Assembly: GCA_021201315.1 (NCBI GenBank)
Contig: JAJQFG010000007.1
Location: forward strand, 1-45,667
Direction of reading: 5' to 3'
Source of the DNA: Erysipelotrichaceae bacterium
GTDB taxonomy: Bacteria; Bacillota_I; Bacilli_A; Erysipelotrichales; Coprobacillaceae
Length of the DNA: 45,667 nt
In this document: positions 10,870 to 36,136 of the stretch, piece after piece
How positions within the stretch are numbered: position 1 is the stretch's first letter
Layout of the letters: every line of letters starts with the position of its first letter
Made by a program: the position numbers and the translations under genes
The notes under the pieces: generated by a model
Seen by the model: the letters and a program-made list of their open reading frames with translations, nothing else
What the model was told of the DNA's origin: nothing
Databases searched by the model: none

Positions 10870-13803
10870 CTATTTAAAAAATTTCTTAGTTTGTAATATA
10901 TCTAAAGCAGTATAATATTTTTCACTATCTTTATCGATCCAATAGGTTTGTGCATAAGATAAAATTAAATCATGAAAAATATCATTAAATAATTCAGCTT
11001 GTTCAGCTTTAGCTGGCCATGTATAGTTGCTTAATGGATCAACAACTGTAGGCATAATAAGATATTGCCCAATGACTTTCTTAAGTTCAGTAGCCCATTT
11101 TAATGTAGCATTGATTTCTTTTTGAGTTGGTTTTTCATCAAAGCCTTTGGCTTTATCACTCACACCTCTAAGCTCTACTGTTTTAAAGACGCTGGATAAT
11201 CTTAAAAAGTTAAACATGAATTCTCGATATTCACCTTTAATACGTGGATGATTAGATTCGTTAATAAGAGTTTCATTGTTTTCAAAGAAAACAGATACAT
11301 CTAAGATAATTTCTTGTATTTTATCATTTGGTAATACATTCATTTGACCTGGTGATGTTATTTCTTTAATAAGATCAATCGTATCATTTTTTAATTCATA
11401 ATAATCTTTTTCACATATACGATTATATAAATACTGTACAATAGCACCTTTAACACGCATATAATGATTACGTTCAAATGGTATATGGTTAGCTGTACCT
11501 AGAACACTTTTATCCCATATTTGACCCATCTTAGCTAACAAAGTATTTGTCCATCCAACATGATAAATAGCTGCAACACCAACATCTAAACGACTCAATT
11601 CTTTTGTTTGGTCTTCATCCAAACTTAACGCAGCACCCATAGTTTCACAATCATCTTTATTAGGTAATCTCATAACTATCTTAATAGCAGTATTCTTGAT
11701 TGCTGTTTCATCTATTGCAGATGGTGATTGATCAATAATCATAAAGCCTTCACCAAAGGAACGCATCTCCGCAATACAACCACAAAGCATCTTTACTGAT
11801 TGCCCTTGAACATTTCCCGATTCAACATTGGTATCTTGTGAACAACGTTTTAAAATATTATGTGCTTCTTCTAAGACGGTAATATGTTGTAAAGAAGAAT
11901 TTGGATTCTTACGAGTAGCTTTACGATATTCCTGTAAACGAATAATAAGAATACCCATAATCAATGATTTTGTTTCTTCAGAACCAATACTACTTAAATC
12001 AATAATAGTATTGCCATCAAATAATGTCTTATCACTAATACCTATAGAACTACCAAATATCTGACCCTCAAAACCATTATTCAAAGATGATATACGATTC
12101 AATAAAGCCCCTTTATAATCTCCTTTAGATTGCTTAGAATAAGGCGATTCATCAATAATCTGATTAAGAGCCTTCTCTAAATCCTTAAACGTAGGATACT
12201 TACTACCCTTATCAATAATACGCATCGAATACTCCAAATCCCAACCATGATCAATATAAACCTTTTCAAAAGCTTGTTTTAGTAATCCTGGCATTGCACC
12301 ATATAATGGCCAACAAGCACATACTGTAGAACTCAATCTATCTAAATGTTCTCTAATATGAATACGTGGATTAAATTCAAATGGATTCATTTGAAGTTTT
12401 CGATAACTATTATCATCTGCTACAAAGATATTCACACCTTTTAATGCTTCAAATTCTATCTTATATTCACCCTTTGCTGGTTCAATAACCAAAAAAGGAA
12501 TCTTTCTTTTAATCATTTCATATAATAAATTATACGTTGTATTACTTTTACCTGATCCTGATGCTCCACAAATAAATGTATGTGATGAAAAAGCATTAAG
12601 ATCTAAAATTGTCGATGTATTTTCAATGGCACCCATATGAAAAACATTACCAAAAGGAATCGGTTGCTTCACATTTTTACGCCATGTTTCAGGAATATTT
12701 CTACCAAATTCAGCCATGCTATCAACCACTACACCTGGTACAGAACGATTCGGAAGACCTAACATAATTGGTATTTCTCTGCCTGATACCATAATACCTG
12801 GTGTTAATATTTGGGGTGGGATATTTTTACCATCTTCATTGACCATTGGTATCATATTTCCTGTATCATCTAGTTTAAACATTTCTAAACTTATTTCTGG
12901 ATGATAAAGATTGCCTAAATAATCTAATACCTTATTTCTTTCATTAATACCATTATTCTTATTTTTATCCCATTCATTAATATAAGCTTGTGATGATACC
13001 TTATTATCCCCTGAAAGCAATGATAATAACGTTGAAACACCAATAGATGCTGTTGCATTATCTTCACTAATAATATAACTTGATGCATTCCACATACCAA
13101 ATAATTGATTAGATTCTATACGTTTAATCATCGCATCAAGCTTTTCTAACATATCTACAACTGCCTTATTATCTCTTGTAACTGAAACAGTACGTGTAAC
13201 CCCTGTAGTACGTCCCATCGCTTCTGATTCACTAGAACTATCACCTTCAGTAATACTTGTACCAGTACTTTTATTTTGACTTGTACCATCACTATCAGCT
13301 ATCGTTGAAGACCATGAAGAACCATTAGAAAAACCTAATCCTAACCATGAAGAAGATGTTCCACTATTTTTACCTTTTCCTTTAGCGATACTATGATTAT
13401 GATTGGTACCATAAGAATTAGAAATAGACTGCCCTGTTGAATGACTAATACCATTAGAAATCGTATAGTTAATACTATCTGTTTCACTTTCACCATAGCT
13501 TGCTTGTTCCTTTGCATATGGTGACAAAGAAGTATAAATATCTTCAAAACCACTCTTCGCTAAATCCATGGCTTCACCCGATACTTTTTGAGCTAATACA
13601 ATCAATGTATATTTCTTACCATTCATTGTATCAATGAACTTTTCAAACCCTTGTGACGTAAAAATACGTCCTTTTTGTTGTTCCTCTTCTCTTCTACCAG
13701 GAATCATACTTACAGATTTAACGGTTGCATTAGGTTTATTCATCAAATCAATCGAAAAAGAATCCAACAAATCTTCCTTTTCATCATAATCTAATTTATT
13801 CAA
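10870..13803 (-). CDS. HerA/FtsK-like ATPase (DUF87-type)
   Basis: A 977-residue ATPase of the HerA/FtsK/TraD superfamily. Walker A is GASGSGKS (413-420), Walker B is ITVLEEAH (641-648), and a DQSP sensor-like element is at 691. An unusual Ser/Gly/Thr-rich stretch covers about 105-210. Relatives pump DNA or protein through hexameric rings. The TTG at 13803 follows AGGGTGTG and is a plausible start, but the codons between the preceding ORF's stop and this TTG are in the same frame: KG, TAA, FPGCEL, then NKLDYDE. The ATPase and the 159-residue ORF upstream therefore look like one interrupted gene of 1,142 codons. The nuclease gene follows after 7 nt, so this pump is the natural candidate to handle it. 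Confidence 0.88.
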   Translation of the reverse strand: MNKLDYDEKEDLLDSFSIDLMNKPNATVKSVSMIPGRREEEQQKGRIFTSQGFEKFIDTMNGKKYTLIVLAQKVSGEAMDLAKSGFEDIYTSLSPYAKEQASYGESETDSINYTISNGISHSTGQSISNSYGTNHNHSIAKGKGKNSGTSSSWLGLGFSNGSSWSSTIADSDGTSQNKSTGTSITEGDSSSESEAMGRTTGVTRTVSVTRDNKAVVDMLEKLDAMIKRIESNQLFGMWNASSYIISEDNATASIGVSTLLSLLSGDNKVSSQAYINEWDKNKNNGINERNKVLDYLGNLYHPEISLEMFKLDDTGNMIPMVNEDGKNIPPQILTPGIMVSGREIPIMLGLPNRSVPGVVVDSMAEFGRNIPETWRKNVKQPIPFGNVFHMGAIENTSTILDLNAFSSHTFICGASGSGKSNTTYNLLYEMIKRKIPFLVIEPAKGEYKIEFEALKGVNIFVADDNSYRKLQMNPFEFNPRIHIREHLDRLSSTVCACWPLYGAMPGLLKQAFEKVYIDHGWDLEYSMRIIDKGSKYPTFKDLEKALNQIIDESPYSKQSKGDYKGALLNRISSLNNGFEGQIFGSSIGISDKTLFDGNTIIDLSSIGSEETKSLIMGILIIRLQEYRKATRKNPNSSLQHITVLEEAHNILKRCSQDTNVESGNVQGQSVKMLCGCIAEMRSFGEGFMIIDQSPSAIDETAIKNTAIKIVMRLPNKDDCETMGAALSLDEDQTKELSRLDVGVAAIYHVGWTNTLLAKMGQIWDKSVLGTANHIPFERNHYMRVKGAIVQYLYNRICEKDYYELKNDTIDLIKEITSPGQMNVLPNDKIQEIILDVSVFFENNETLINESNHPRIKGEYREFMFNFLRLSSVFKTVELRGVSDKAKGFDEKPTQKEINATLKWATELKKVIGQYLIMPTVVDPLSNYTWPAKAEQAELFNDIFHDLILSYAQTYWIDKDSEKYYTALDILQTKKFFK

Positions 13804-13818
13804 CTCACACCCTGGAAA

Positions 13819-14298
13819 TTATCCCTTAAAATTACTACTCAACAAATTTCCAGCAACCAATTCATTATTCTCATTATTCACACAAACATAGAAAGAAATA
13901 TACTTACCATCACTTTGAAGAATCATCCCAACAATACCACCTAAAGTATATATAGCAGAATAAACACTCACCAATTTTTCAAAATTATCTTCATCCTGAT
14001 TATACATAATCTTTGTCATATGATAAATCGCTATATTCTTTAAACGATTCTTTTTATGATTATCTAATATACATACCTCACTCTTATATAAATCACCAAA
14101 AGTCGCAGGTTGAAGCATATCCATATGACGATTATTAATAAAAACATCCAAAAGTTTTAAAGAATCCTTCAATCCTTCCGTTCTTTGTTTAGTCATTAAT
14201 AATTGTTTAGCTTTTTCTTCTTTCTTATCTATACTTCTTTGTGTATTACCTCTAATATTTCTTCTTTGTTCCCCTTTGTAATCTGATATATTAGGCAT
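13819..14298 (-). CDS. N-terminal domain severed from the HerA-like ATPase
   Basis: A 159-residue protein with a highly basic, Arg/Lys-rich first 40 residues, then a mixed fold with SLKLLDVFINNRHMDML, TFGDLYKSEV and AIYTLGGIVGMIL. It ends in LLSSNFKG, and the TAA at 13821-13819 is followed in frame by FPGCELNKLDYDEKED, i.e. the start of the ATPase. From recall, related ATPases have a similar segment (L.GNFPG) joined directly to their N terminus, which supports an original fusion. GAGGAGGGAGA precedes the ATG. As separate proteins they may still assemble. No independent function is recognised. Confidence 0.65.
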   Translation of the reverse strand: MPNISDYKGEQRRNIRGNTQRSIDKKEEKAKQLLMTKQRTEGLKDSLKLLDVFINNRHMDMLQPATFGDLYKSEVCILDNHKKNRLKNIAIYHMTKIMYNQDEDNFEKLVSVYSAIYTLGGIVGMILQSDGKYISFYVCVNNENNELVAGNLLSSNFKG

Positions 14299-16186: not shown

Positions 16187-18838
16187 TTATTTTTTACCAA
16201 ATAATTTTTTAAATCCTTTTCTTAATTTATCCGTTGGTTTTATACTATCATTTAATTGACTAATTTCATGATATAATTCTATGATTTTATTTTTCATCTT
16301 TTCGTTTTTAATATGATCTAAATAATCTATCCATACCTCTTTATTAAAATGCTCAGCTAAGATTAGTTTACCTTGACTAGAAGCATAGTTTGTCATATCT
16401 TTATCATATGTTGATATGACATAATAAGATGCTAATGTATGCAAAGCATACATATCTTTTTTTGTACGTTTTGCGATAATTGCGAAATATTGTTCTAACA
16501 TATATGCTTTTATAGCATCATCCACTTGAAACATGTTTAATGCATCGTTTAGTGTATCAGGGCTTTCTATCAGTTTAGCAATGTTTTGAATATATAAGTC
16601 TAAATAAGCTTTTTCATTAGCTTTAATAGATAATTGATGGTTAGATACTTTAGCTATAAATTTATCTAAATTTGAAGCGCGTACATCTTTTACATCTAGA
16701 CCATACAAAGCTTTTAAAGTATTCTGTCCTATTTCTTTTAATGGTTTACACCATTCATAGTAATCTCTTATAAATTGTTCATCGCTATGAGATTCACTTA
16801 TAATTGGTAACATATTATCTACTTTGATTGCTAAGTTTCTTTGAATGCTTTGAGGAAATTCTTCTTTTCTTACAAAATTTAATAAAGCTATAGTTTCTTT
16901 ATATTTATTTTTACTTTGATTTACAATTTCCATATATTTTTCAAAAAAAGTATCACCAACAGATTTATCATTATCTAAATAATCAAATAATAACTTAAAC
17001 GATTTCAATAACTCTTGATTTGTCTGTTGTTGTTTTTCCATATAGGTAGTAATAAGTAATTCAACGGCATCACTATGAACTCCTGATTTCAGCATACTTT
17101 CACATTGATGATATAAATCATCCATATTAATTGTACTACCATAAAGATATATCCAATTTTTTGTAACTGGTGCTTTAGAACCTTTATTTTTAGAGAATTT
17201 CATGGTTAATAAATTCATAACTTCTTCATCATAACCACTAACCAGATGAGTTGCATCACTTGGTAAACCTTCACTTAAAACCAATACATATAAATTATAT
17301 AAATAATTTGTCCAATCTTGATGATTATCCAATAATACTTTATTTAAACCAATACCTTGTAAATAATCATTAAACAAATCAATCATCACCATACCAACAT
17401 CAACAGCTATTTCTTCATCAATATCTGTTAAACCTTGAATATAACTAGTTATTTGACTTTCATTAAAATAATAATCACCTATTGTTTGATATAAAGAGGC
17501 ATCTTTTTGTATAAAATTCCATAAAGTCTTAACATTATGAACAACTATTTTTGTATAATCCATAGTAATATCGACATATTGACATATCATTTGTAGAACT
17601 TTTTGTTGATATGAAATGTTTTGAGAAGTTAAACTGGTTTGATAAATATAAGATAATAATTGATATTGATTGTTCATATCTTCCTGATACCATTTAGAAT
17701 AAGCTTTATATACTTCTACACTTAAATTTTTTTCTAACATCGATCCAACAATCATATATTTTTGAACCAGCTGAATGTACTTTACAAGTGAATCATAATC
17801 ACATTGTTTAATACTTTCTTCCTTAAATAAATGTTGATAGATTTCATAAACTTCATAAATATCTTTAAAATCATAATGATTAAAGTATTTTAATATTTCA
17901 TTAAAGTCTTTTAAATTATATTGACATGCATAAGATAAATAGTTTTCGTTTATTTCAATTTCAAAGTCTGTTTCGTTTGTAGAAGCATCAATTATGACAA
18001 ATGGAGAATTAGCCATTGATTTAAAACTTGTTGATGATGGTGATAGTGGAGATATACCTATAATATCAAATAGATAGTGTTTTGATAAATCGGGATTGTT
18101 ATTATATTTGACATAGTGGTTGCCTTGATCTAAACAATATTGAAAGCTGCTTGGATTGCTTTTTTCGATATTAGCGTTTGTAGAAAATGATATTTTTTTA
18201 CTTAATTCTAAAGGTAAAGCACAAGTAATACATGCAATCCACTTTAGAACATGCTCACTATCATCTTTGATGATTAAGATTTTTTTGTCTTCACTATATT
18301 GTTGAGCAATGATAAAGCTTATAGCTTTATTGATGATCTCACTATGTTGTTGATAGAATGATTGGATTTCATCTATTGTAAAAGGTAAAGAAGAAGTTAA
18401 TTCTACGTTTGGCAGGAATTCACTTGTTTCGTTTTCTTCATAGTAGTGGTTTGCAGGTAGTTGTGTGTAGGTGTAAAGTTCTTTATTCATATAGGTTATT
18501 GGATAATTGTCTATATTTCCTACAAAGTAGTGTTTAATAAAGTTTCCAGGTCTTTTCTCTTCATCGGGTTTACGAGGATGCTGATATGCAAAGGCTGAAA
18601 CATGATGTAATGGTATATATTCAAAAGAATCTATAAGACCTTGTTTAGAGCCTGTTTTGGATTCATTTTTTAATTTGATGTATTGTTTGGATAATAATTG
18701 TATTTCATTATCATCTAAAACATCATAAATTTCTTTACTAAAAGAACGTATTTTATAACCATCATTATGATCTTCTTCGCCAAGATTTTCAATGTTTCTT
18801 CCTGGTTTACATCTTGTATATATGATTTGATTAAACAT
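16187..18838 (-). CDS. GAP1-like GTPase-associated protein
   Basis: An 883-residue protein matching the GTPase-associated protein 1 (GAP1) family. It opens with IIYTRCKPG...GYKIRSFSKEI, has KRPGNFIKHYFVG near residue 97, and LPLELSKKISFST near 219, which are the N and middle domain hallmarks. The remainder is an all-alpha repeat-like region ending in a basic tail. Family members are known from gene neighbourhoods to accompany P-loop GTPases in predicted conflict systems and are thought to act as effectors or scaffolds. The adjacent upstream gene here is exactly such a GTPase, 4 nt away. AAGGGTGAT precedes the ATG. No enzymatic motif was found. Confidence 0.8.
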   Translation of the reverse strand: MFNQIIYTRCKPGRNIENLGEEDHNDGYKIRSFSKEIYDVLDDNEIQLLSKQYIKLKNESKTGSKQGLIDSFEYIPLHHVSAFAYQHPRKPDEEKRPGNFIKHYFVGNIDNYPITYMNKELYTYTQLPANHYYEENETSEFLPNVELTSSLPFTIDEIQSFYQQHSEIINKAISFIIAQQYSEDKKILIIKDDSEHVLKWIACITCALPLELSKKISFSTNANIEKSNPSSFQYCLDQGNHYVKYNNNPDLSKHYLFDIIGISPLSPSSTSFKSMANSPFVIIDASTNETDFEIEINENYLSYACQYNLKDFNEILKYFNHYDFKDIYEVYEIYQHLFKEESIKQCDYDSLVKYIQLVQKYMIVGSMLEKNLSVEVYKAYSKWYQEDMNNQYQLLSYIYQTSLTSQNISYQQKVLQMICQYVDITMDYTKIVVHNVKTLWNFIQKDASLYQTIGDYYFNESQITSYIQGLTDIDEEIAVDVGMVMIDLFNDYLQGIGLNKVLLDNHQDWTNYLYNLYVLVLSEGLPSDATHLVSGYDEEVMNLLTMKFSKNKGSKAPVTKNWIYLYGSTINMDDLYHQCESMLKSGVHSDAVELLITTYMEKQQQTNQELLKSFKLLFDYLDNDKSVGDTFFEKYMEIVNQSKNKYKETIALLNFVRKEEFPQSIQRNLAIKVDNMLPIISESHSDEQFIRDYYEWCKPLKEIGQNTLKALYGLDVKDVRASNLDKFIAKVSNHQLSIKANEKAYLDLYIQNIAKLIESPDTLNDALNMFQVDDAIKAYMLEQYFAIIAKRTKKDMYALHTLASYYVISTYDKDMTNYASSQGKLILAEHFNKEVWIDYLDHIKNEKMKNKIIELYHEISQLNDSIKPTDKLRKGFKKLFGKK

Positions 18839-18842: not shown

Positions 18843-19943
18843 TCACCCTTTCCCTATTATTTTTTCTTGTGAGAATATCCACATTAGTGGATCTAATACT
18901 CTATGAGGTTCAACTGTATTTAACTGCAAATGTCCTAAAGGTACATTTCCATAACTACTAACACCAAAGAATCTTACATTAGTAAAATTATTTTCAATGG
19001 CATCTAAGAAAGCTCCTTCACCAATATCTTCTAAATACTCTCTAATTTCTTCATCAACAAGATTGGCATCACTTGTTTTAAATTGTTTAGCTTTAGCGTG
19101 TGGACTAGGTTTTGTAATTTGGGATTGACCAAATTGATCTAATATAATATCAATTTTTGTAAAACATATCGCTACTGGTATATCTATTTTTTTATTAACT
19201 TTGATTTCCTTACTTTGACGTATAAATGTCGCAATGTCTTGTGCAAGGTTAGTAGAATCATCATCATCGTTATCTCCATTTAATTGATTGTCCGAAGATG
19301 ACCACTCAATAATATTTTGATCTTTAATACTATTTTTAACACGAGATAGAGACATTGGATCAATAAGGAAAATAATATATTTAGATGAAGCAATATAATT
19401 AGTTTCATCACTATCCATTACTTTCTTTTGATCTTCACCAGCACCATCAAATATCGTCATACAATAAGAATCTAAATTATTTCCATTACCACTTTTTCTA
19501 ACACGCCATTGATAAGGAATAATCTCTCCACTATTCGTACTTTCTGAAGGTCTTAAATCATCATAGATGCTTTTCTTTTCTTCTTTAAAGCGATTATTTG
19601 TTTCACTATTCATTGCTGATACATCAAAACCACAACGACTTGTTTTTAATTCTTGAATCATGGTTGTAATATAATTTGTTTTTCCTGATCCTGATAATCC
19701 AACGATAGAAAATGGAATATATTTTTTATATTGAAAAATATCATTAGGCAATTCATGTTCACAATTATTGCATTTTAAGATAATTCTTTTAATACCTGTG
19801 CCTTTACATTTTGGACATTTAGGTAATTTTCCTGCTTTAATGTTAAAAGGCATCTTTAGTATTTCACCACAATTAGAACATTCAAAATGAGCTGTTTTCG
19901 TTGTGATTGTTTCAAAACAATAAGGGCATCTTATTTCATTCAT
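18843..19943 (-). CDS. Zinc-ribbon P-loop GTPase (GAP1 partner)
   Basis: A 366-residue soluble GTPase. Two Cys-pair ribbons come first (C6/C9 with C22/C25; C43/C46 with C58/C61). Then come Walker A GLSGSGKT (82-89), the G3-type DGAG (166-169) and the G4-type TKID (262-265). The order and motifs fit the TRAFAC-like GTPases linked to GAP1 proteins. TTAGGAGGATAG gives the ribosome site and overlaps the old stop codon (19957-19955) of the preceding interrupted gene. A second GTPase of the same general type but with membrane segments is at 28695-29951, so the operon has one membrane-bound and one soluble switch. Confidence 0.88.
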   Translation of the reverse strand: MNEIRCPYCFETITTKTAHFECSNCGEILKMPFNIKAGKLPKCPKCKGTGIKRIILKCNNCEHELPNDIFQYKKYIPFSIVGLSGSGKTNYITTMIQELKTSRCGFDVSAMNSETNNRFKEEKKSIYDDLRPSESTNSGEIIPYQWRVRKSGNGNNLDSYCMTIFDGAGEDQKKVMDSDETNYIASSKYIIFLIDPMSLSRVKNSIKDQNIIEWSSSDNQLNGDNDDDDSTNLAQDIATFIRQSKEIKVNKKIDIPVAICFTKIDIILDQFGQSQITKPSPHAKAKQFKTSDANLVDEEIREYLEDIGEGAFLDAIENNFTNVRFFGVSSYGNVPLGHLQLNTVEPHRVLDPLMWIFSQEKIIGKG

Positions 19944-20173: not shown

Positions 20174-23011
20174 TTACTTTGGAATACGTCCATCATTTCT
20201 AGCAACCAAATAGAGATTTGGCCAAGCTCCATAATCATCTAATAAAACATCATTAGATTGAATATGTAAAATAGCATCAGTTCGTTTTTTCTTAAATGTT
20301 CCTTTCCATTCTATAGAATATTGAAGTTTGGTTTTCGGACTATTGTTGATATATAGTTTTGCGGGTGAAGTATAGTATGTTTGACCATTTTCATTGATTT
20401 CACCTATAACTGTAATATAGAGTTCTTTTTCGGGAACAGAACTAATAACAATGTTATGTCTTTGATTGTATTGATTAATGGTTACTTTATCCATCATATC
20501 TAAATCATCTACTGTTAAATATGGCGGTTTATGACTTGAGGTATCCTTAACATTGCATGCATAATAAAAACTTGTAATATTACTAGCTATCGGTTCAACC
20601 ATATGTATACTTAAACCTGCATGAAAGATTTTTGTAAGTGTTTTATTAATTTCACAACGATCAAATGTTGAAACATGAACTACATTTCCTAATACTGCTT
20701 TACTTCCTGCGATAGTTACAATACCAAGTTGATAACCTACATTTCTTAAACCAATCATTTCTAATTGTCTTTGATGACTATCACCGATAGCGACAATTTT
20801 TCCATATTTATTAATAGATGATGCATTAATGATTTCATTCACTTCACCAAAAGGATGTTCAAGATTAATAACTTGTACCTTATATGGTTTAGTTGTAGAT
20901 GATTGAATCATCATGGTTATTTTTCTTGTATTATCATCATATTTAACATTCGTTATGGTTGTTGGAGAAGGAATGTCTTCATAAATGATATCTTGAATAA
21001 GACCATTAGTGCACATTTCTTTGCCATTGGTTTGATAAATAACCTGGAATCGATATTGATAAGGTATGCCTGTTTCAACTGTATCAGAATAACTATTATA
21101 AGCTTTGTTGACTAAACAAATTGTATTAGATGTTGGTTGATTATCCACTTGATGATTTCTGCTTCTTAATATTCTTATACCTAGCGCATTCTTAGGTAAG
21201 GTCCAATTAAAGGTTACTTTATGATTATCTAAGAAATAATTAAAAGTTGCTTGTGATATTTCAGTATATAATGTTAATGATGTTGTTAGAGGAGAAGATA
21301 TTGTTCCTTCTCTTTTAACAAATAATGCATAGTTATATGTTAATCCAGATTCTACTCGATTATCCAAATATTGCAGTTGATTCTCAGCTTCTAACAAAAC
21401 TTCGCCATCATGATCATGATTAGGCATATGTTGGGTATTTCTTACTAATACATAAGAAACACCTTTATCTAAGGATGCACTCCAATTTAATTGAACACCT
21501 TGACTTGTCATACTTTTATTAAATACATTGCTTACTCTAGGAGGTACTTTATTAATGTATTCTTTAGCATCTAAAAAATCATTGACTTCCTTTAGTATAT
21601 CTATACAGCGATTGGCTGCTTCATATTGATTTGTTCCTTTTTGGTTAAACATTTGTTGAGCACGATTAATTGCTGATTGGATAGAGCTTTGTTGTGATGT
21701 TAGATTTAGCTTAGGATATTGAGTTTGTAGTTGCATGATATAATCTTGAGCTTTGAAGTATTCGTGATGATCTATATAGTTTTGTAGTTTTTTTAATGGC
21801 TCATCATATATTTTAAGCATAGCTTTTAAATTATTATCTAGCTTTACCAATTGATTACTTTTAGGATTAGCGTTTTTAGCTTTATTGATATAAAGATTAG
21901 CTTCATGAATATCCTGATTTTGAATTGCTTCCATAGCTAAATCATAATAAATATCAAATTTTTGATATTCCATTAAATCCATGTCACAATAAGAACACTT
22001 TCTTAATGATGAAGCTATAATCTTACCGCAACTAGGACATTTCTTATAAAAAGGCTCTCCACAAACAGGACATTTTTCTTTAATTGCAATGCTCTCAGAT
22101 GGATAAGTCATAGATGCTTGACAATTACCACAACTTACATGTATTAAGGCTTTTTCTGGTTCATAAGGATCTGATAATAAGTTTAATTGATGATTATAAA
22201 TAGCTAAAGCTAAATCATAATCAGGAAATCTTGTTTGAATCTTTGCGATGACAGTCTCTGCATAGTTTTCATCTTTTTTCATAGCATAAGGAACCTGATT
22301 AGCAGTATTTAAAAATGAATTGAGTTCTAATAGTTTTAATGAATTATCATATTTAATTCTATTTTCTTCACTACTAAAAATAGTCTTAGCTTTCTTAAAT
22401 AGCTCATCATTACCCTTTGAAGCAATCATATATAAATCATCGGTAGAATAAGTAGAATAATCTATTTGTGGTTGTTTATTATAACAAGCTAATAATTCAT
22501 ATAAATTAGTGATTGTTTTTGTAAGCCATGGATATTGATTATTTTTTATATATTGATTAATTTCATCCATATCATGAATAAAATATTGATCAAAATTAAC
22601 TTTATGGGTTTGTTGTACTTTAAAATTATGACTTTCAAAAATAACATTAACATCTGATTGTGTCAAACTAAACTTACTAGCTAATTTTTGTGTTCTACTA
22701 CTAGAAATAGGCATCATATAAGGTTTTCCATCACTCATAACAACAGCTAAACTATCAAGTTCTATCTTTTTATTTCTAATATAGGCATTAGCTTCCTTTA
22801 CTCTTAATCCAGGATTCAATAAAATGCTATCCATTTCTTGTTTTAAAGATGCTTGAGTACTAAGTGCTTGTTTTTTTATAGGATCATTTTCAAGATTTAA
22901 TCGATTACTAATTTGTTGATACCATTGATTAATAATTGTTTGAATCTTTGCAGGATCTTGTTCATAAGGGCTTAAATCCTTAAGCATTTCATAAAAATTG
23001 TCTCTTGCCAT
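20174..23011 (-). CDS. Zinc-ribbon, J-like, FN3-like large protein (truncated copy)
   Basis: A 945-residue paralogue of the protein upstream. The N-terminal about 90 residues (NFYEMLKDLS, a long helix with WY, then PGLRVKEANAY) recall the helical outline of a J domain, but there is no HPD motif. A double zinc ribbon with CGNC, CPVCGEPFYKKCPSCGK and CSYC lies at about 295-345. A helical repeat and several beta-sandwich units of fibronectin-III type follow. It ends at DGRIPK by an in-frame TAA, 72 codons before its original end. I infer an Hsp70 partner or scaffold that links chaperones to other components. Confidence 0.8.
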   Translation of the reverse strand: MARDNFYEMLKDLSPYEQDPAKIQTIINQWYQQISNRLNLENDPIKKQALSTQASLKQEMDSILLNPGLRVKEANAYIRNKKIELDSLAVVMSDGKPYMMPISSSRTQKLASKFSLTQSDVNVIFESHNFKVQQTHKVNFDQYFIHDMDEINQYIKNNQYPWLTKTITNLYELLACYNKQPQIDYSTYSTDDLYMIASKGNDELFKKAKTIFSSEENRIKYDNSLKLLELNSFLNTANQVPYAMKKDENYAETVIAKIQTRFPDYDLALAIYNHQLNLLSDPYEPEKALIHVSCGNCQASMTYPSESIAIKEKCPVCGEPFYKKCPSCGKIIASSLRKCSYCDMDLMEYQKFDIYYDLAMEAIQNQDIHEANLYINKAKNANPKSNQLVKLDNNLKAMLKIYDEPLKKLQNYIDHHEYFKAQDYIMQLQTQYPKLNLTSQQSSIQSAINRAQQMFNQKGTNQYEAANRCIDILKEVNDFLDAKEYINKVPPRVSNVFNKSMTSQGVQLNWSASLDKGVSYVLVRNTQHMPNHDHDGEVLLEAENQLQYLDNRVESGLTYNYALFVKREGTISSPLTTSLTLYTEISQATFNYFLDNHKVTFNWTLPKNALGIRILRSRNHQVDNQPTSNTICLVNKAYNSYSDTVETGIPYQYRFQVIYQTNGKEMCTNGLIQDIIYEDIPSPTTITNVKYDDNTRKITMMIQSSTTKPYKVQVINLEHPFGEVNEIINASSINKYGKIVAIGDSHQRQLEMIGLRNVGYQLGIVTIAGSKAVLGNVVHVSTFDRCEINKTLTKIFHAGLSIHMVEPIASNITSFYYACNVKDTSSHKPPYLTVDDLDMMDKVTINQYNQRHNIVISSVPEKELYITVIGEINENGQTYYTSPAKLYINNSPKTKLQYSIEWKGTFKKKRTDAILHIQSNDVLLDDYGAWPNLYLVARNDGRIPK

Positions 23012-23026: not shown

Positions 23027-26000
23027 TTAAGGTACCATTAATGTCTTTTCATTGATAGGTTGTAATTCAAATTCATCAGCATCATATTCATCTAAGAATA
23101 ATCTTAAAGATGCTTTTGATGGAATATTATTTGGAACATCAAAAGTTATATATAGAAAATCTCCTGAATCATTTATTTTCAAAGAATGATTCGTATAAGA
23201 TCGTTCATCAACTCTAGCTACAACTACAGCTCCTTTAACTTTATATTGTTTTGGTATACGACCATCTGTTCTAGCAACCAAATATAAAATTGGCCAATCA
23301 TCTATATGTTTTAATGGACGACCTTTATTGGAAATACGTAAGGTCGCACCTGTACGTTTCTTTTTAAATGTACCTTGCCAACCAATATCATAAATAAGTG
23401 TTGCTTTTTTATTGTTGTTAATATATAACTTCGCAGGTTCACCATAATATGTTTTACCATTATCATTCATTTGAGCAATCACTGTTATATAGAGTTCTCG
23501 TTCAGGAATTGCATCGATGATGATACTATGTTGTTTTTGATATTGGGTGATTGTCATTTGACGCATTTCATTGATATCGTTAACCGTTAAATAAGGCGGT
23601 TTACTATTGGATGTTTGTTTGACTTTACAAGCATAGAAAATATTGGTTACATTTGTAGCAATTGGTTCATTTAAATGAATGTGTAAACGTTTATTGATGA
23701 TTTTTGTTTTGGTTTTATCTATATCAAGATGTGCTGTTGTGGATATATGAGATGTGTTTCCTAGTATTGCTTTGTTTCCTACAATAGTGATAATACCAAA
23801 GTAGTAATTTGTATTTTTTAATGCACTCATGTTAAGTTGTGTGTTTGTGGTTTCACCAATAGCAACTATTTTTCCGTATTGAGGGATTTGTGAAACATCA
23901 ATCGTATCATTGATATGTCCAAATGGTTTTTCTAAATTGATTACTTGTATTTTATAAGATTTTGTAGTAGATGATTGAATATGGAATATGATTTTGTTTA
24001 AAGTTTCATCATATTTAGCCTGAGTGATTGTTGATGGTTTTGGAATTTCTTCATTAAGAACATCACAAACAATACCATTGGTACATACTTCTCTTCCACT
24101 AGCTTGATATATTACTTGAAATCGATATTGATACATTTTGCCTTTTTCGATTTGATTGTCAATAAAACTATTTGATGCCTTAGTAGCTACACATATGGTA
24201 TTGGCATTAGGATTTATATCCACACTTCCACCTTGACATCTTAAAATTCTAATACCTAAAGCATGCTTTGGTAATGTCCATTGAAATCTAATATTTTGAC
24301 CATCAATCATATAATTTAAAGTATTTTTATCAATCTCATTATAAAGCGTTATTGAAGTCGTTGCAGGTGTAGAATAATTATCTCCACGTTTAACAAACAA
24401 CGCATAATAATAGGTTAACCCTGATTCAATACCTCTATCTAAAAAGCTAAATCTCGTATCGGTTTCTTCTATCACAAAACCATCACTTATATTCATAGGT
24501 CGATGCTGAGAATTTCTTACAAGCACATAAGTGACACCAATATCTTGTGACGCATTCCAATTTAATGAAACTCCTTGTTGATTAACGCTGCTATTTAAAA
24601 CACTCACTGGTCTTGGAGACACCTTATCTAAATATGCTTTCGCTTCTGGAAAGTCTTTAATCATACGTAAAATTCTAACACAGTTATTAGCAGTTTCATA
24701 TGTATTAGTCCCTTTTTGATTAAACATCACCTTAGCATTATTAATAGCTGTTTGAGCTGTTTTTTGTTGATAATCTAGATTTAGCTTTGGATATTGTTTC
24801 TTGAGATTATTTATATATTGATTAGCTGTTAGATATTCATGATTATTCATGTAATTTTGTAGTTGTTTTAAAGGTGCATCATATTGTTTTTGTAATGATG
24901 TAAGATTGTTTTCTAGTTGTATAATCTGACTACTTTTTGGATTGGCTATTTTGGCTTTATTAATATATAATTTAGCTTCATTAAGATTTAGGTTTTGCAT
25001 AGCTATTGAAGCCTGATGATAATAATGATCAAAGTTTTGATATTCTATTAAATCCAAATGACAGTTTGAACATATCTTTGAAGAAGAAGGAATCAACTTA
25101 CCACAACTTGGACATTTTTTATAAAATGGTTTTCCACACACAGGGCATTGACTATTCATCGCAGCACTTGCTGATGCAAACGGTGTAGATGTATGACAAT
25201 GACCACAATAGACTAATATAGATGATTTTTTGGCTTCATAAGGATCTCTTATTAGTCCTAGTTTTTGATTATATATAGCTAAAGCTAGATTATAATCAGG
25301 AAATTTTGTTTGTATCTTTTTAATTGCAGCTTCAGCAAAGATTTCATCTTTTTTCATACTATCAGGCACATTATTAGCAATAGCAAAAAATGAGTCTAAT
25401 GACATAAGATTTAATGAATTATTATACTTTCTTCTATTTTCATCACTACTAAAAGCATCTATCTTAGCTTTAGAAAATAATTTTTGACCTTCTAATAAAG
25501 ATGTTTTCATTGAATATTCTTTATCACCAGCATTTGCTATAGCATATAATTCGTCCGTAGATTTAGAAGCATAATTCATATTAGGTTGATGATTATAACA
25601 AGCCATTAAATCATATAAATTATTAATTTGTTTATTTTCTGGTATCCATGGATACTTTTTCGCAACCTCAGGTTTATTGATTTCATTTATCCAAATATTG
25701 ATTTCATCAATTTGTGTCTTTAAGAAGTTCTTATCAAAATAATCATTCTTACTATTCACTTCTTCACCATGATGTCTTTTAAATATAGCTACAACTTCCA
25801 TACGTTTTAAGCCATATTTCTTTACAATATTACCAATAAAAGCATTTGTAACAGGAAATGATTTTGTATCTTCATTACTTAAAACAATAGCTATATTTTC
25901 AACCTGTTTTTTCATTTTTTCTTTATATTCATTAGCTTCCTGCATTCTAAGCTTTGTATCATTCATCACTTTTTCCATTTCTGGTTTTAAATCCATTTGT

Positions 26001-26155
26001 GATTTAATTTGATTTTTAATAGCTATATTTGTTGTTTTATGATATTTTGTATTTAAATTATTATACCAACCGTTAATAGATTGATTAATCACTTTTAAAT
26101 TTTTTTGATCAATACTTAAATCATCAAGTATTTCATAAAAATTAACTCTTGGCAT
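23027..26155 (-). CDS. Zinc-ribbon, J-like, FN3-like large protein (full-length copy)
   Basis: A 1,042-residue intact counterpart of the truncated protein above. It has an N-terminal J-like helical module (NFYEILDDLS...LRMQEANEYK, no HPD), Cys-rich ribbons (CGHC, CPVCGKPFYKKCPSCGK, CSNC, about 320-370), a TPR-like helical segment with LYINKAKIANPKS, then FN3-like beta units and the closing FDVPNNIPSKASLRLFLD. The start is the ATG at 26155, 9 nt after AGGAG; 14 upstream in-frame codons to 26197 run through an intergenic hairpin and are rejected. It follows the first Hsp70 gene, so it is well placed as that chaperone's partner. Nothing identifies a client. Confidence 0.82.
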   Translation of the reverse strand: MPRVNFYEILDDLSIDQKNLKVINQSINGWYNNLNTKYHKTTNIAIKNQIKSQMDLKPEMEKVMNDTKLRMQEANEYKEKMKKQVENIAIVLSNEDTKSFPVTNAFIGNIVKKYGLKRMEVVAIFKRHHGEEVNSKNDYFDKNFLKTQIDEINIWINEINKPEVAKKYPWIPENKQINNLYDLMACYNHQPNMNYASKSTDELYAIANAGDKEYSMKTSLLEGQKLFSKAKIDAFSSDENRRKYNNSLNLMSLDSFFAIANNVPDSMKKDEIFAEAAIKKIQTKFPDYNLALAIYNQKLGLIRDPYEAKKSSILVYCGHCHTSTPFASASAAMNSQCPVCGKPFYKKCPSCGKLIPSSSKICSNCHLDLIEYQNFDHYYHQASIAMQNLNLNEAKLYINKAKIANPKSSQIIQLENNLTSLQKQYDAPLKQLQNYMNNHEYLTANQYINNLKKQYPKLNLDYQQKTAQTAINNAKVMFNQKGTNTYETANNCVRILRMIKDFPEAKAYLDKVSPRPVSVLNSSVNQQGVSLNWNASQDIGVTYVLVRNSQHRPMNISDGFVIEETDTRFSFLDRGIESGLTYYYALFVKRGDNYSTPATTSITLYNEIDKNTLNYMIDGQNIRFQWTLPKHALGIRILRCQGGSVDINPNANTICVATKASNSFIDNQIEKGKMYQYRFQVIYQASGREVCTNGIVCDVLNEEIPKPSTITQAKYDETLNKIIFHIQSSTTKSYKIQVINLEKPFGHINDTIDVSQIPQYGKIVAIGETTNTQLNMSALKNTNYYFGIITIVGNKAILGNTSHISTTAHLDIDKTKTKIINKRLHIHLNEPIATNVTNIFYACKVKQTSNSKPPYLTVNDINEMRQMTITQYQKQHSIIIDAIPERELYITVIAQMNDNGKTYYGEPAKLYINNNKKATLIYDIGWQGTFKKKRTGATLRISNKGRPLKHIDDWPILYLVARTDGRIPKQYKVKGAVVVARVDERSYTNHSLKINDSGDFLYITFDVPNNIPSKASLRLFLDEYDADEFELQPINEKTLMVP

Positions 26156-26185
26156 TTCAATCATCTCCTTCTTTATAAATAAAGA

Positions 26186-26205
26186 CGATAGGCGCAAGCC
26201 TATCG
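26186..26205 (-). terminator. Intercistronic hairpin, possible attenuator
   Basis: A perfect 8-bp stem (CGATAGGC / GCCTATCG) with a 4-nt loop just after the first Hsp70 gene, followed on the minus strand by a T-rich but interrupted run. It could be a partial terminator or RNA-stability element that lowers expression of later genes relative to GrpE-like and Hsp70. Confidence 0.45.
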
Positions 26206-26212
26206 CCTGTTT

Positions 26213-27886
26213 TTATTCAGCTAAAACTGTATATTGTTGTAATTCTTCTTTTAATGCATCAGCATCAACGCCACCATCAAATGTGATTTCTAATAAATTA
26301 GTAAGGCTCATATCAGTAGAAGAAGTGGCTTTAATCATAATACCAGCAGCTCTTACTGTAAATTCTACATAAACAGCAGTGCCTCTGGGATCTGAACCAT
26401 TTAAGTCTAATTTTAATTCACCTAATTTTTTAACTTCATCTTCAGCAGGTGTATCTTGAGGAATGTATTCGATTGGATTTTCTGGATCAGGTTTAAAACA
26501 TGGTTTTACTGTGTCGTTTAATGAACGACTTTCGTAAACTTGGAATACAATAGCTCTTTGATTAGCAACTGATGTGTAATAAGTTTTTTCAACTTTTTCA
26601 CCCATCTTTTGTCCTTCTTTAACTAAGTTATCAATTAAGAATTCGTTTTCACCATTAGATTGTGTGAAATAAACGGCTGGTCCAAATGAACGTGGAGCCA
26701 CATCATTAATGGTGATTTTTTGTTCTGTGACAGTTTGATCGCCACCAGTTGTTTTAATTTCTTCATTACTAGTTTCTTGATTTTCTTTTTCACTTACCTT
26801 CATTGAAGCATATATTGCTGCACCTTTAGCAACTGCTCTATCAGGGTCTTCTTGTTGAACAATACCTGGGAATCTAGCTTCAACAGCATTTTTAATCATT
26901 GGCATATAAGTAGAACCACCAACTAATAAGACTTTATCAATCTTTGGTTCAGTTCCTAATTTTTGTTTAGCTTTATCTAAAGTACCTTCTACATAACTCA
27001 TTGTTTGATCAACTAAAGCTCTTGTAAGATCTTCAAACTCTGCTTTAGTGACATCAAATTTAACCATTTGACCTTCTACACTTATTCTAACCGTTGCTTT
27101 TTCAGCAGTTGTTAAACGTTTCTTAGTTGCTTCAACCTTAGAACGAATAGATTGTAATGTATCAATATCTAACGCATCATCACTAACACCTAATTCTTCA
27201 ACAATCTTATTTTTACAATAATTAAATAAAGCATCATCCCAATCTTTACCACCTAAAGTATCATTACCACCAGTAACAACAACTTCAACTTCAGCAGCTT
27301 CTTGACCATCATCACCTTGTTTCATTGACATATTAATCAAAGTAACATCAAATGTTCCACCACCTAAGTCATAAACCAAAATATTCATATCTTCCTGGAA
27401 TAATCTATGACAATAGTTTAATGCAGCAGCAGTTGGTTCGTTAATTAAATCCATAACATTTAAACCAACACCCTCACCTGCAGCCTTAGTTAAATTTCTT
27501 TCCTTTAATCCAAAATATGCAGGAACTGTAATAATAACATCAGTCACTTCTTCGCCCTGTTCCTCTGCCATATCTTTGATTCCTTTTAAAATCATACCTG
27601 ACAATACAACAGGTGTAAACTCTTTACCTTGCAAAATACGAGGTGGATATTTATCTTCTTTACCAATTTCTCTTTTAATAAACTGTACAACATTAGCACC
27701 ATCAGTTTCTACATATTCCTTAGCACTTTCACCAATAATAATATTTTCTAAACTCTCAAAATATAATGCAGAAGCTAAAGTATCTGTTCCATCAGTATTA
27801 TTATGAATAACAACTGGATTTCCTTGAGCATCCAATTTTGCGATACAACTATAAGTAGTCCCTAAATCAATTCCATAAGTAGCCAT
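26213..27886 (-). CDS. Hsp70 family protein (first copy)
   Basis: A 557-residue Hsp70. YGIDLGTTYS (residues 4-13), ITVPAYFGLKERN, NEPTAAALNYC, VYDLGGGTFDVTL and LLVGGSTYMP mark a complete ATPase domain, followed by a beta-rich C-terminal region of about 190 residues without the DnaK lid. It is close to the 539-residue copy at 7202-8821. AAGGAGAGAA precedes the ATG, and the gene starts 2 nt after the GrpE-like stop. The neighbours GrpE-like (upstream) and J-like (downstream) would provide a complete dedicated chaperone cycle. The strict GIDLGTTYSC start and the GESAKEY element indicate an active ATPase rather than a degenerate one. Confidence 0.94.
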   Translation of the reverse strand: MATYGIDLGTTYSCIAKLDAQGNPVVIHNNTDGTDTLASALYFESLENIIIGESAKEYVETDGANVVQFIKREIGKEDKYPPRILQGKEFTPVVLSGMILKGIKDMAEEQGEEVTDVIITVPAYFGLKERNLTKAAGEGVGLNVMDLINEPTAAALNYCHRLFQEDMNILVYDLGGGTFDVTLINMSMKQGDDGQEAAEVEVVVTGGNDTLGGKDWDDALFNYCKNKIVEELGVSDDALDIDTLQSIRSKVEATKKRLTTAEKATVRISVEGQMVKFDVTKAEFEDLTRALVDQTMSYVEGTLDKAKQKLGTEPKIDKVLLVGGSTYMPMIKNAVEARFPGIVQQEDPDRAVAKGAAIYASMKVSEKENQETSNEEIKTTGGDQTVTEQKITINDVAPRSFGPAVYFTQSNGENEFLIDNLVKEGQKMGEKVEKTYYTSVANQRAIVFQVYESRSLNDTVKPCFKPDPENPIEYIPQDTPAEDEVKKLGELKLDLNGSDPRGTAVYVEFTVRAAGIMIKATSSTDMSLTNLLEITFDGGVDADALKEELQQYTVLAE

Positions 27887-27888
27887 GT

Positions 27889-28683
27889 TTAATTCTCTCC
27901 TTCTTCAATAATTTCTTTTTCTATAGTCTCAGTATTCTCTACTGTTTCTACCACTTCTATTGCTTCTTCCTTTGTTTCTTCTTTTACTAAAGTTTCATCA
28001 TACTTATAAATTGAAACATATTCAGGATATAATACTTTCTTTCCCTTAGAAATACTAGGGTTAAAAGATTGAATAACTGTTCTATGTAAACTTTGATCAG
28101 CAGTTGGTATCATTGGATTTCTAATCTTTGTACTCTTAGGTGATCTTTCTTCACCAGGATCTGTCGTATTAAATTCACATCCATATTCACTTAACACATC
28201 TTCAATACTCTCAAACATAAATAATACTTGTTTTTGATAATTCTTATCTTCTGTTGCATTTTCATCTAACAAACGATAATAATCACCATAAACAGTAGCA
28301 ATAGCTTTTAATAACGGATCAAGTCTTTCACCTAATATTTCTTTTTTAAGACTCTCATTTTCTTTGTTCATATCAATACGAACTTGTTGTTGGAATTCTG
28401 CATTTTGTTTAATGTACTGTGTTAATAAATTGCGGTTTCTTTCCTGATTTTTAGCAATTTCACTAACATCATTAGAATCTTCTTCTTGTGGCTTAGCTTG
28501 CAACAATTCAATAATCGTATCCAGCTTTTCTAATAGTTCTTCTGATTGTTCGCTACTCATATCAGGTTTTGTTTCTTCTTTTACTTCTTCTTCAATAATA
28601 GGTTCAATTGTTTCTTCTACTACCTCTTCATCATTAGAAGAAAACATTTTCTCCAGCTTATCTTCATTTGTCCATGAACTCAT
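27889..28683 (-). CDS. GrpE-like nucleotide exchange factor
   Basis: A 264-residue acidic protein. After an acidic N terminus, a long coiled coil (about 45-125) contains SEQSEELLEKLDTIIELL. Then come LDPLLKAIATVYGDYY, EDVLSEYGCEF, PTADQSLHRTVIQSF and VLYPEYVSIYKY near 150-235, which echo the helical bundle and beta wing of GrpE, including the H of the usual D..LH element. An acidic Glu-rich tail ends it. GrpE opens Hsp70 to release ADP. It lies directly before an Hsp70 gene. Sequence identity to classical GrpE is low, so the assignment rests on architecture and context. TAGGAGGG precedes the ATG. Confidence 0.65.
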   Translation of the reverse strand: MSSWTNEDKLEKMFSSNDEEVVEETIEPIIEEEVKEETKPDMSSEQSEELLEKLDTIIELLQAKPQEEDSNDVSEIAKNQERNRNLLTQYIKQNAEFQQQVRIDMNKENESLKKEILGERLDPLLKAIATVYGDYYRLLDENATEDKNYQKQVLFMFESIEDVLSEYGCEFNTTDPGEERSPKSTKIRNPMIPTADQSLHRTVIQSFNPSISKGKKVLYPEYVSIYKYDETLVKEETKEEAIEVVETVENTETIEKEIIEEGEN

Positions 28684-28694: not shown

Positions 28695-29951
28695 CTATAT
28701 TTGTTCCGCAGCTTTATAATATTCATTGTCCGTTGTTTTGATAATCCAATCAAAACACTCATCAACACCAAATGGTGTATAACTCTCACCATCAGGAACA
28801 TGCCCAATAGCACTAGCTACAAAGAATGAAAGATTTTTAAATTGATGCTCTAGAGTTGCTAAAGCATTATTCATATCATATTCATTCATAAATGCTTTTA
28901 TTTGATTATTACGATATTGATCATATGTCATTGCTTTTTCATCTTCAGTTAAATTATTTAAATATTGTTTATAGGTTAATTTAATATGTGCAATACTTAT
29001 TTTCTTTTTTAAAACTGGTAAATCTGCTTTACATATAACAACAGCTACCGGCTTATTACTAACTTTATTGTTTTTAATAATACCTGTTTGTATCAAATAA
29101 TTAATAAAATTGTTTACTACTTCATCAGGATCCATTTGTGAATAATTATCAATATTCTCATTTGCTGCAATAGCTTCATTTCTAATACTATCTACTGATA
29201 AAGGATCAATCAATAAAATAATACCATTACAATAACGATATTGTTCCTGAGTAATTTCATAATCACTAATATCAGGATTAAACATTTCTCCTGCAATATC
29301 ATATATAGCAAACTTTCTATCAGTACGTAATTGATCACTTTTAATTATCATTTCATACATCATCGCATTTGTTTCACTTGTTGAATCAGGTAAATAAGCA
29401 CCTGTAAAATATTCGTTTAGATTATTGAATCTTTCTTGTCGATTATTAGGAATCGTATATTCAATTAATGGATTCATATTCAATTTCTTTAAATAACTAT
29501 GATAAAACGATGATAAAAACGCCGTCTTTCCTGCACTGCTACCACCTGTTAATTGAATAATAATAGACTTTGTAGAATCACTCGCTAAAGCCGAATCACA
29601 ATTAGGACAATAAGCTACTAACTTAGAACGACCATTGAAAAATGTACAAGGTAATTTTTCTCCACAAGTACATGTATGATTAAAAATACCAAAATGATTC
29701 GGTATCAACTTATAGTGCTTTTCACCACAACTTGGACATTCATAAGCAGGCAAATTAAACTGTTCTTTACATACTTCACAATCTAGTTTAATCCCTTTAC
29801 TTAAACGATATATGCGATCACATGCAAATGTAATCATATAAGTCACAAACACCAGAGCTGTAATAACTAAACTCACACCACCAATAAACACCAAACAAGC
29901 CAATGTTATAACACTTCCACCAACAACACCGACTACAAAAATTCCCACCAT
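28695..29951 (-). CDS. Membrane-anchored zinc-ribbon GTPase
   Basis: A 418-residue protein. The first about 45 residues are two hydrophobic helices (VGIFVVGVVGGSVITLACL and the next stretch). A Cys-rich ribbon region has C58/C61, C72/C75, C94/C96 and C115/C118. Walker A is GGSSAGKT (136-143), the G3-type motif is DIAG (218-221), and a CKAD element stands in for TKxD. The fold resembles the soluble GTPase at 18843. The ATG overlaps the previous ORF by 19 nt and has no ribosome site. A T8 run on this strand (plus 29958-29965) sits at the junction; one extra T would fuse the two ORFs into a single protein of about 560 residues. Confidence 0.85.
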   Translation of the reverse strand: MVGIFVVGVVGGSVITLACLVFIGGVSLVITALVFVTYMITFACDRIYRLSKGIKLDCEVCKEQFNLPAYECPSCGEKHYKLIPNHFGIFNHTCTCGEKLPCTFFNGRSKLVAYCPNCDSALASDSTKSIIIQLTGGSSAGKTAFLSSFYHSYLKKLNMNPLIEYTIPNNRQERFNNLNEYFTGAYLPDSTSETNAMMYEMIIKSDQLRTDRKFAIYDIAGEMFNPDISDYEITQEQYRYCNGIILLIDPLSVDSIRNEAIAANENIDNYSQMDPDEVVNNFINYLIQTGIIKNNKVSNKPVAVVICKADLPVLKKKISIAHIKLTYKQYLNNLTEDEKAMTYDQYRNNQIKAFMNEYDMNNALATLEHQFKNLSFFVASAIGHVPDGESYTPFGVDECFDWIIKTTDNEYYKAAEQI

Positions 29952-30367
29952 AGCAATAAAAAAAACAACTTTATAATATAATAAATAACACCATCAAAAT
30001 CATAAGGTAATAAATCAAACCAATCCATCAAATCTTTGATTCTAACTCTACTTTCTTTAACACCTTCAATAATGACTTCTTTTAATTGAGAATAACCAGG
30101 ACCAAAGAAATAATTGATTTTAGCAGGTTCATTATCTTTATTTGGATATTCATAATTCTTATAATGAATATGATGTTTTAACGCTAATACAAAACAATAA
30201 ACAACATTAAATGCACTTAAGAAAAAAGCACCCAATATAATAAGCATGGCAATCATCAAAGCCACACTAATTCCTGCACCAATAATATTAAATACAAAAG
30301 TAAGTACTGGTACAATAACTGGATCCCATAAAATAAGCAATATAGCTAAAAATATAATAAACCCCAT
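29933..30367 (-). CDS. Multi-pass membrane segment, N-terminal part of the GTPase
   Basis: A 144-residue ORF with two or three hydrophobic helices (about 3-27, 29-52, and 122-140), a loop with HYKNYEYPNKDNEPAK, and a YFFGPGYSQLKEVI element near 86-99. AAGGAGGGAG precedes the ATG. It is the first gene of the operon. Its C-terminal helix is out of frame with the GTPase's N-terminal helices only because of the T8 run. From recall, related proteins carry the YFFGPG element and the GTPase in one chain, which supports a split gene. Alone it would be a membrane anchor with no enzymatic motif. Confidence 0.7.
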   Translation of the reverse strand: MGFIIFLAILLILWDPVIVPVLTFVFNIIGAGISVALMIAMLIILGAFFLSAFNVVYCFVLALKHHIHYKNYEYPNKDNEPAKINYFFGPGYSQLKEVIIEGVKESRVRIKDLMDWFDLLPYDFDGVIYYIIKLFFLLLWWEFL

Positions 30368-30585: not shown

Positions 30586-30611
30586 TATAAAAAAGATGGC
30601 TAAGCCATCTT
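30586..30611 (-). terminator. Terminator of the arginine operon
   Basis: The stem AAGATGGC / GCCATCTT with a 3-nt loop is followed by a T6 run on the minus strand. It begins inside the argF stop codon and insulates the 27-kb operon downstream. Confidence 0.88.
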
Positions 30612-31608: not shown

Positions 31609-31618
31609 TGTTTACCTC

Positions 31619-32479: not shown

Positions 32480-32491
32480 AAACACATCTCC

Positions 32492-33706: not shown

Positions 33707-33717
33707 TTAGTCCTCCT

Positions 33718-36125: not shown

Positions 36126-36136
36126 TGTAATCACTC

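What the first reader, a model, noticed from the sequence alone, without database searches (positions are those of the whole stretch)
26155..28683. A private Hsp70 cycle: GrpE-like, Hsp70 and J-like proteins encoded side by side
Consecutive genes encode a coiled-coil GrpE-like factor, a lid-less Hsp70 and a large protein whose N terminus has a J-like helical outline but no HPD motif. This suggests a dedicated chaperone machine with an altered J contact, repeated later in the operon by a second J-like protein and two more Hsp70s.
Basis: inference. Interest (0 to 1): 0.66.

Follow-up and report, generated by a model that had tools for sequence, protein, structure and literature searches.

The report
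Hsp70 switch module with HPD-less J-like partner
A gut bacterium carries a gene cluster, of a predicted conflict-system type already described in 2020, that has its own Hsp70, GrpE-like and J-like proteins; here both sides of the contact by which J proteins normally trigger Hsp70 (the HPD motif and its partner arginine) are missing, so this Hsp70 is probably controlled in a different way.

Summary
Side by side on the minus strand lie a GrpE-derived protein (27889-28683), an Hsp70 with intact ATPase motifs but no lid (26213-27886), and a 1,042-residue protein (23027-26155; ATG start at 26155) whose first ~80 residues are predicted to fold as a J domain without HPD. A second J-like protein and two more Hsp70s follow. 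The block is syntenic in three other genomes and partly so in a fourth. It is a member of a published kind: the HSP70 'theme' of GAP1-N2 double-GTPase conflict systems (Kaur 2020, PMC7159879). New here: all 11 operon Hsp70s have also lost the otherwise invariant arginine that HPD acts on (DnaK R167), while 10 of 10 DnaK/HscA/HscC controls keep it; H1-type copies have lost Q378 too. So both halves of the canonical trigger are gone, although the J fold and the ATPase are kept. I infer a GTPase-gated, nucleotide-switched docking or assembly module, not a folding machine. Interaction and function were not testable. In this strain three genes carry breaks absent from relatives (a frameshift and two in-frame stops), possibly assembly errors. 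New variant of a known kind.

The parts
28695..29951 (-). Double-GTPase (DO-GTPase2/1) with zinc ribbons; N-terminal hydrophobic part is on the separate ORF 29933-30367 because of a frameshift at a T8 tract
   Evidence: PF19993 35.3 bits and PF19975 32.2 bits, both over cut-off; one continuous ORF in G003, G004, G920
29933..30367 (-). N-terminal hydrophobic part of the same DO-GTPase gene (144 aa)
   Evidence: tblastn of the G004 protein matches both ORFs in two frames
27889..28683 (-). GrpE-derived coiled-coil protein (264 aa), putative nucleotide exchange factor
   Evidence: family profile finds the G990 protein at E 4e-11, which matches PF01025 GrpE at 35.7 bits, cut-off 25.8; G920 member 16.2 bits, collinear but below cut-off; AF2 model poor
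26213..27886 (-). Lid-less Hsp70 H1 (557 aa): ATPase domain + SBD-beta; R167->D, Q378->Y, P419->G, D481->A; linker ITINDV
   Evidence: Pfam HSP70; alignment to DnaK/HscA/HscC
26183..26208 (-). Terminator-like hairpin (11 bp stem) between Hsp70 H1 and J1
   Evidence: -18.9 kcal/mol, z -3.2
23027..26155 (-). J1: HPD-less J-like domain (res. 1-80), second helical bundle that may also be J-like (res. 176-252, unproven), zinc ribbons (317-379), helical/TPR-like region, FNIII repeats (from about 515)
   Evidence: AF2 + VIA-align; zinc ribbon; FNIII by profile against PDB (E 1.9e-9, titin)
20174..23011 (-). J2: paralogue of J1 (51% identical), ended by an in-frame TAA about 73 codons before the end expected from J1
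18843..19943 (-). Second DO-GTPase (366 aa) with zinc ribbons
   Evidence: PF19975 30.6 and PF19993 27.7 bits, cut-off 27
16187..18838 (-). GAP1 (GTPase-associated protein 1)
   Evidence: PF20014 GAP1-M 29.1 bits, cut-off 24; G990 homologue has GAP1-N2, 79 bits
15105..16169 (-). Transglutaminase-like protein 1
   Evidence: PF01841 27.5 bits
14505..15072 (-). Two small highly charged proteins; homologues at the same place in G003, G004, G920
10870..14298 (-). HerA/FtsK-like ATPase, one ORF of 1137-1156 aa in relatives, here split by an in-frame TAA
   Evidence: PF01935 48.7 bits
10356..10862 (-). DNA/RNA non-specific endonuclease, likely variable effector
   Evidence: PF13930 115.6 bits; present in G003 and G920, no homologue found in G004
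9927..10352 (-). YezG-like immunity protein
   Evidence: PF04634 28.9 bits
8830..9918 (-). Transglutaminase-like protein 2
   Evidence: PF01841 26.9 bits
7202..8824 (-). Lid-less Hsp70 H2 (540 aa), R167->N, Q378->Y
   Evidence: Pfam HSP70 284 bits
4969..7131 (-). Hsp70-VWA fusion H3 (720 aa), VWA in place of the lid; R167->M, Q378 and P419 kept
   Evidence: Pfam HSP70 351 bits, VWA 73.5 bits

Best explanation
The trio is the chaperone-like module of an HSP70-theme GAP1-N2 double-GTPase system. Two DO-GTPases and GAP1 form the switch; the J-like/zinc-ribbon/FNIII protein is a scaffold that docks the lid-less Hsp70s through a J-shaped module; the GrpE-derived protein resets their nucleotide state. 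Because HPD on the J side and R167 (plus Q378 in H1-type copies) on the Hsp70 side are both missing, hydrolysis is not triggered in the DnaJ way: the Hsp70 most likely works as an ATP-dependent docking or assembly element whose turnover is set by the scaffold or GTPases, gating downstream effectors (nuclease/YezG, HerA ATPase, transglutaminase-like proteins). Shown by sequence or prediction: identity of the parts, loss of both contact halves, intact ATPase motifs, missing lid, synteny. Inferred: the docking, the altered trigger, the reset role and the effector gating.
For: Synteny DO-GTPase-GrpE-Hsp70-(Hsp70-VWA)-J/FNIII-DO-GTPase-GAP1-HerA in G003, G004 and G920 (with small differences in Hsp70 copies), reduced in G990. 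Published class with HSP70, GrpE, DnaJ-FNIII fusion. J fold: the top seven PDB rows are J domains (6rzy Z 8.4, 70 of 70 residues; 5nro DnaJ-DnaK Z 7.3, rmsd 2.5), next row Z 5.7; the J-like profile's best hit among 277 proteins is a Pfam-DnaJ protein, E 0.006. HPD absent in 6 of 6. R167 lost in 11 of 11 operon Hsp70s, kept in 10 of 10 DnaK/HscA/HscC controls; D35 bonds to R167 and Q378 in DnaK (PMC8215388; PMC7289447). GrpE homology through G990. FNIII.
Against: No complex was predicted and no activity measured. J assignment rests on a four-sequence AF2 model; Foldseek E-values exceed 1 and Pfam DnaJ does not match. GrpE-like model poor. Few independent events: the operon Hsp70s form two groups. 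The Rhodococcus Hsp70 keeps R167 although its neighbouring J domain reads HPN. Three genes are interrupted in this assembly.
Confidence: 0.5

Rival explanations
1. The J-like module is a relic or a pure structural scaffold: it kept the helical hairpin but no longer touches any Hsp70, and the Hsp70s work alone or with GrpE only.
For: HPD lost in all six homologues, sequence too diverged for Pfam DnaJ; R167, and in H1-type copies Q378 and usually P419, lost on the Hsp70 side.
Against: The module is kept across divergent homologues (down to about 23% identity) and the J/FNIII gene always lies in the Hsp70 operon; the Rhodococcus cassette also pairs Hsp70, GrpE and a J domain without the aspartate (HPN).
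Confidence: 0.25
2. The operon is decaying in this strain and no longer works as a unit; the divergence reflects relaxed selection.
For: Frameshift at T8 in the membrane DO-GTPase, in-frame TAA in J2 and in the HerA gene.
Against: The same HPD and R167 losses are in relatives whose genes are open; ATPase motifs are intact; the breaks may be draft-assembly errors or phase variation.
Confidence: 0.15
3. The Hsp70s are served by the housekeeping DnaJ and GrpE, and the J-like proteins act as competing regulators, as Pam16 does to Pam18.
For: The genome has an HPD-bearing DnaJ, a second HPD J protein and a GrpE.
Against: R167, the partner of the HPD aspartate, is missing in every operon Hsp70, and the loop called GrpE signature is deleted.
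Confidence: 0.1

Closest known systems
GAP1-N2 double-GTPase conflict systems, HSP70 theme (Kaur et al. 2020, PMC7159879)
   Same: DO-GTPases with zinc ribbons, GAP1, FNIII protein fused to a J-type domain, HSP70 and GrpE in one operon, extra HSP70 gene
   Different: The paper reports a DnaJ domain and does not mention HPD; here HPD and the Hsp70 arginine are both lost; Hsp70-VWA fusion, two J/FNIII paralogues, HerA ATPase and nuclease/YezG pair are features I did not find described for this theme
DnaK-DnaJ-GrpE
   Same: Three-part logic, ATPase core of Hsp70, J fold, GrpE ancestry
   Different: No HPD, no R167, no lid, no 290-295 loop, degenerate linker
HscC and HscA
   Same: Specialised Hsp70s with their own J partners; GrpE-signature loop deleted
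   Different: They keep R167 and Q378 and have a lid; this operon has its own GrpE relative
J-like proteins without HPD (Pam16/Tim16, chloroplast J-like; from general knowledge)
   Same: J fold without HPD
   Different: Pam16 works beside an HPD-bearing partner; none is encoded in this operon
Rhodococcus pseudokoreensis plasmid Hsp70 / J-TPR / GrpE / FtsK cassette (L087)
   Same: Hsp70 with GrpE, a J domain lacking the aspartate (HPN) and an FtsK-type ATPase
   Different: No DO-GTPase annotated nearby; its Hsp70 keeps R167

Membership tests
GAP1-N2 double-GTPase system, HSP70 theme | One or two DO-GTPases with zinc ribbons | tested here: met
   PF19993/PF19975 over cut-off for both
GAP1-N2 double-GTPase system, HSP70 theme | GAP1 of type N2 | tested here: inconclusive
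   GAP1-M over cut-off in the window; the N2 domain is detected only in the G990 homologue
GAP1-N2 double-GTPase system, HSP70 theme | FNIII-repeat protein fused to a J domain or TPR | tested here: met
   FNIII by profile; J fold by prediction
GAP1-N2 double-GTPase system, HSP70 theme | HSP70 plus GrpE genes | tested here: met
   GrpE through relatives only
GAP1-N2 double-GTPase system, HSP70 theme | second Hsp70 without substrate-binding domain (a subset only) | tested here: not met
   H2 and H3 keep SBD-beta; the G920 relative has an ATPase-domain-only copy. Not a required feature: the paper gives it for a subset.
J-domain protein | four-helix J fold | tested here: met
   AF2 + VIA-align, top seven rows J domains; prediction only
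J-domain protein | HPD motif between helices II and III | tested here: not met
   absent in all six
J-domain protein | stimulates Hsp70 ATPase | not testable with these tools
   needs biochemistry
GrpE | homology to PF01025 | tested here: inconclusive
   window protein has no direct hit; family linked through G990 at 35.7 bits
GrpE | GrpE fold and nucleotide exchange activity | tested here: inconclusive
   AF2 pLDDT 54; activity not testable
Hsp70 (DnaK-type) | ATPase domain with catalytic residues | tested here: met
Hsp70 (DnaK-type) | SBD-alpha lid | tested here: not met
   H1/H2 end after SBD-beta; H3 has VWA there
Hsp70 (DnaK-type) | J-responsive arginine R167 | tested here: not met
   0 of 11 against 10 of 10 controls

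The most novel reading that the evidence does not exclude
A J-like/Hsp70 pair in which both halves of the HPD-arginine trigger were lost while the J fold, the ATPase and a GrpE-type partner were kept: a natural Hsp70 cycle controlled by a different trigger, used as a GTPase-gated switch in a conflict system.
Probability: 0.35. Interest if true: 0.75.

Novelty: new variant of a known kind. Interest (0 to 1): 0.5.

Why it matters
HPD and its partner arginine are described as invariant in J/Hsp70 pairs (PMC7289447). An operon-encoded J-like/Hsp70/GrpE set that lacks both would show what else can drive or replace the trigger, and gives a concrete handle on how the untested double-GTPase conflict systems use an Hsp70.

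Tried and rejected
Profile searches of PDB sequences with the GrpE-like and J-like alignments found nothing significant. hhalign of the GrpE-like set with two GrpE sequences was weak. Pfam DnaJ was not among the families listed for the J/FNIII members, and a small J-domain HMM did not match them above background. The AF2 model of the GrpE-like protein was too poor to use. The second helical bundle (residues 176-252) looks J-like in helix pattern and in its 'sdenRrkYnnsl' end, but I could not test it alone and do not claim it. Close relatives of the J region in plasmids, phages and viral contigs: none found. L031 (Christensenella) was only a zinc-ribbon match. PADLOC gave only a weak hit for Hsp70 and generic HerA hits. 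I considered 'canonical chaperone machine' and rejected it because of the HPD and R167 losses and the missing lid.

Full report
OBSERVATION. On the minus strand a long operon-like array runs from about 30367 to about 3326, next to arginine-biosynthesis genes upstream (30610-37390; identified by reading their translations). The three named genes are 27889-28683, 26213-27886 and 23027-26155. The third starts at the ATG 26155 behind AGGAG; the TTG at 26197 lies inside a terminator-like hairpin. Later in the array come J2 (20174-23011, 51% identical to J1) and two further Hsp70s, 7202-8824 and the Hsp70-VWA fusion 4969-7131.

CONTEXT. Double-GTPases are encoded on both sides of the chaperone genes, and GAP1 follows. 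With the FNIII repeats of J1 (best PDB profile match titin, E 1.9e-9) this is the HSP70 theme of the GAP1-N2 systems of Kaur et al. 2020: HSP70, GrpE, and an FNIII protein fused to a DnaJ domain or TPR. That paper does not mention HPD. The same genome also carries a second, tubulin-theme set on another contig.

RELATIVES. The J/FNIII protein occurs in 3 of 315 genomes of the order (own genome included, other hits are short zinc-ribbon matches) and 2 of 391 sampled genomes of a class reached through a Christensenella record. Gene order is kept in G003, G004 (two Massilimicrobiota records) and G920, and partly in G990. A nuclease and YezG-like protein sit between HerA and the second transglutaminase-like gene in the window, G003 and G920, but were not found in G004: a variable-effector pattern of the kind expected of conflict systems.

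J-LIKE MODULE. AF2 on residues 1-345 of J1 (four sequences) gave pLDDT about 92 for the first domain. VIA-align ranks seven J-domain structures first (Z 8.4 to 6.4), then unrelated chains at 5.7 and below; Foldseek alone is weak. A profile of the six J-like modules has as its best hit among 277 proteins the Rhodococcus J-TPR protein, a Pfam DnaJ member, and then E. coli DnaJ. No member has HPD. I rate the J fold as likely, not proven.

GRPE-LIKE PROTEIN. A profile of four members finds the G990 protein (E 4e-11 in a set of 119 proteins), which passes Pfam GrpE; the G920 member aligns to GrpE nearly end to end below cut-off. The window protein itself has no direct Pfam GrpE match, so its GrpE ancestry is by linkage.

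HSP70S. Catalytic residues are intact in nearly all (the short G920 copy is degenerate; single changes T12->S in G004 and T11->I in G990). H1 and H2 end after SBD-beta; H3 has VWA instead of the lid. R167 is D, N, M, Q, A or G in all 11 operon Hsp70s and R in all 10 DnaK/HscA/HscC controls, including the two other Hsp70s of the same genome. Q378 is lost in the H1-type copies and kept in Hsp70-VWA. In DnaK, D35 of HPD bonds to R167 and Q378 (PMC8215388), and R167H suppresses D35N (PMC7289447). The GrpE-signature loop is deleted in all 11, but also in actinobacterial Hsp70s that lie beside a GrpE gene, so it does not exclude GrpE use. On the tree the operon Hsp70s fall in two groups with Rhodococcus and Tsukamurella relatives among them; hence one or a few losses, not eleven. 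Tsukamurella: R167->G beside a J-like protein reading HPK; Rhodococcus: R167 kept beside HPN. The correlation is thus suggestive, not strict.

MECHANISM. Shown or predicted: parts, fold, double loss, missing lid, synteny. Inferred: docking of the Hsp70 on the FNIII scaffold by the J-like module, nucleotide reset by the GrpE relative, control of turnover by something other than HPD, effector gating by GTPases and GAP1.

CAVEATS. In this assembly the membrane DO-GTPase is frameshifted at one of only two homopolymers of eight or more in the window, and J2 and HerA carry an in-frame TAA each. Relatives have open frames. Decay, phase variation and assembly error are not distinguished.

Noticed in passing
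window 29958-29965: T8/A8 tract exactly at the frameshift that splits the membrane DO-GTPase gene; one of only two such tracts in the window; possible phase variation or assembly error.
   Followed up: partly
window 20170-20180: J2 ends at an in-frame TAA although about 73 further codons stay open and match J1.
   Followed up: yes
window 13780-13860: HerA-like gene split by an in-frame TAA; single ORF of 1137-1156 aa in G003, G004, G920.
   Followed up: yes
window 26183-26208: Terminator-like hairpin between Hsp70 H1 and J1, might set unequal expression of the two parts of the operon.
   Followed up: partly
window 9927-10862: Non-specific DNA/RNA endonuclease with YezG-like immunity gene inside the operon, present in some relatives only.
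   Followed up: partly
L036 5833-18445 (G000:C83) and L037: A second GAP1 system of the tubulin theme (two DO-GTPases, GAP1, vWA-like, Tubulin_2) in the same genome and in a congener.
   Followed up: partly
L087 9986-15974: Rhodococcus plasmid cassette Hsp70 / J(HPN)-TPR / GrpE / FtsK-like ATPase with no DO-GTPase annotated nearby.
   Followed up: partly
L070 4344-5471: ATPase-domain-only Hsp70 with degenerate phosphate loop (DLGSVSLD) beside H1 in G920.
   Followed up: no
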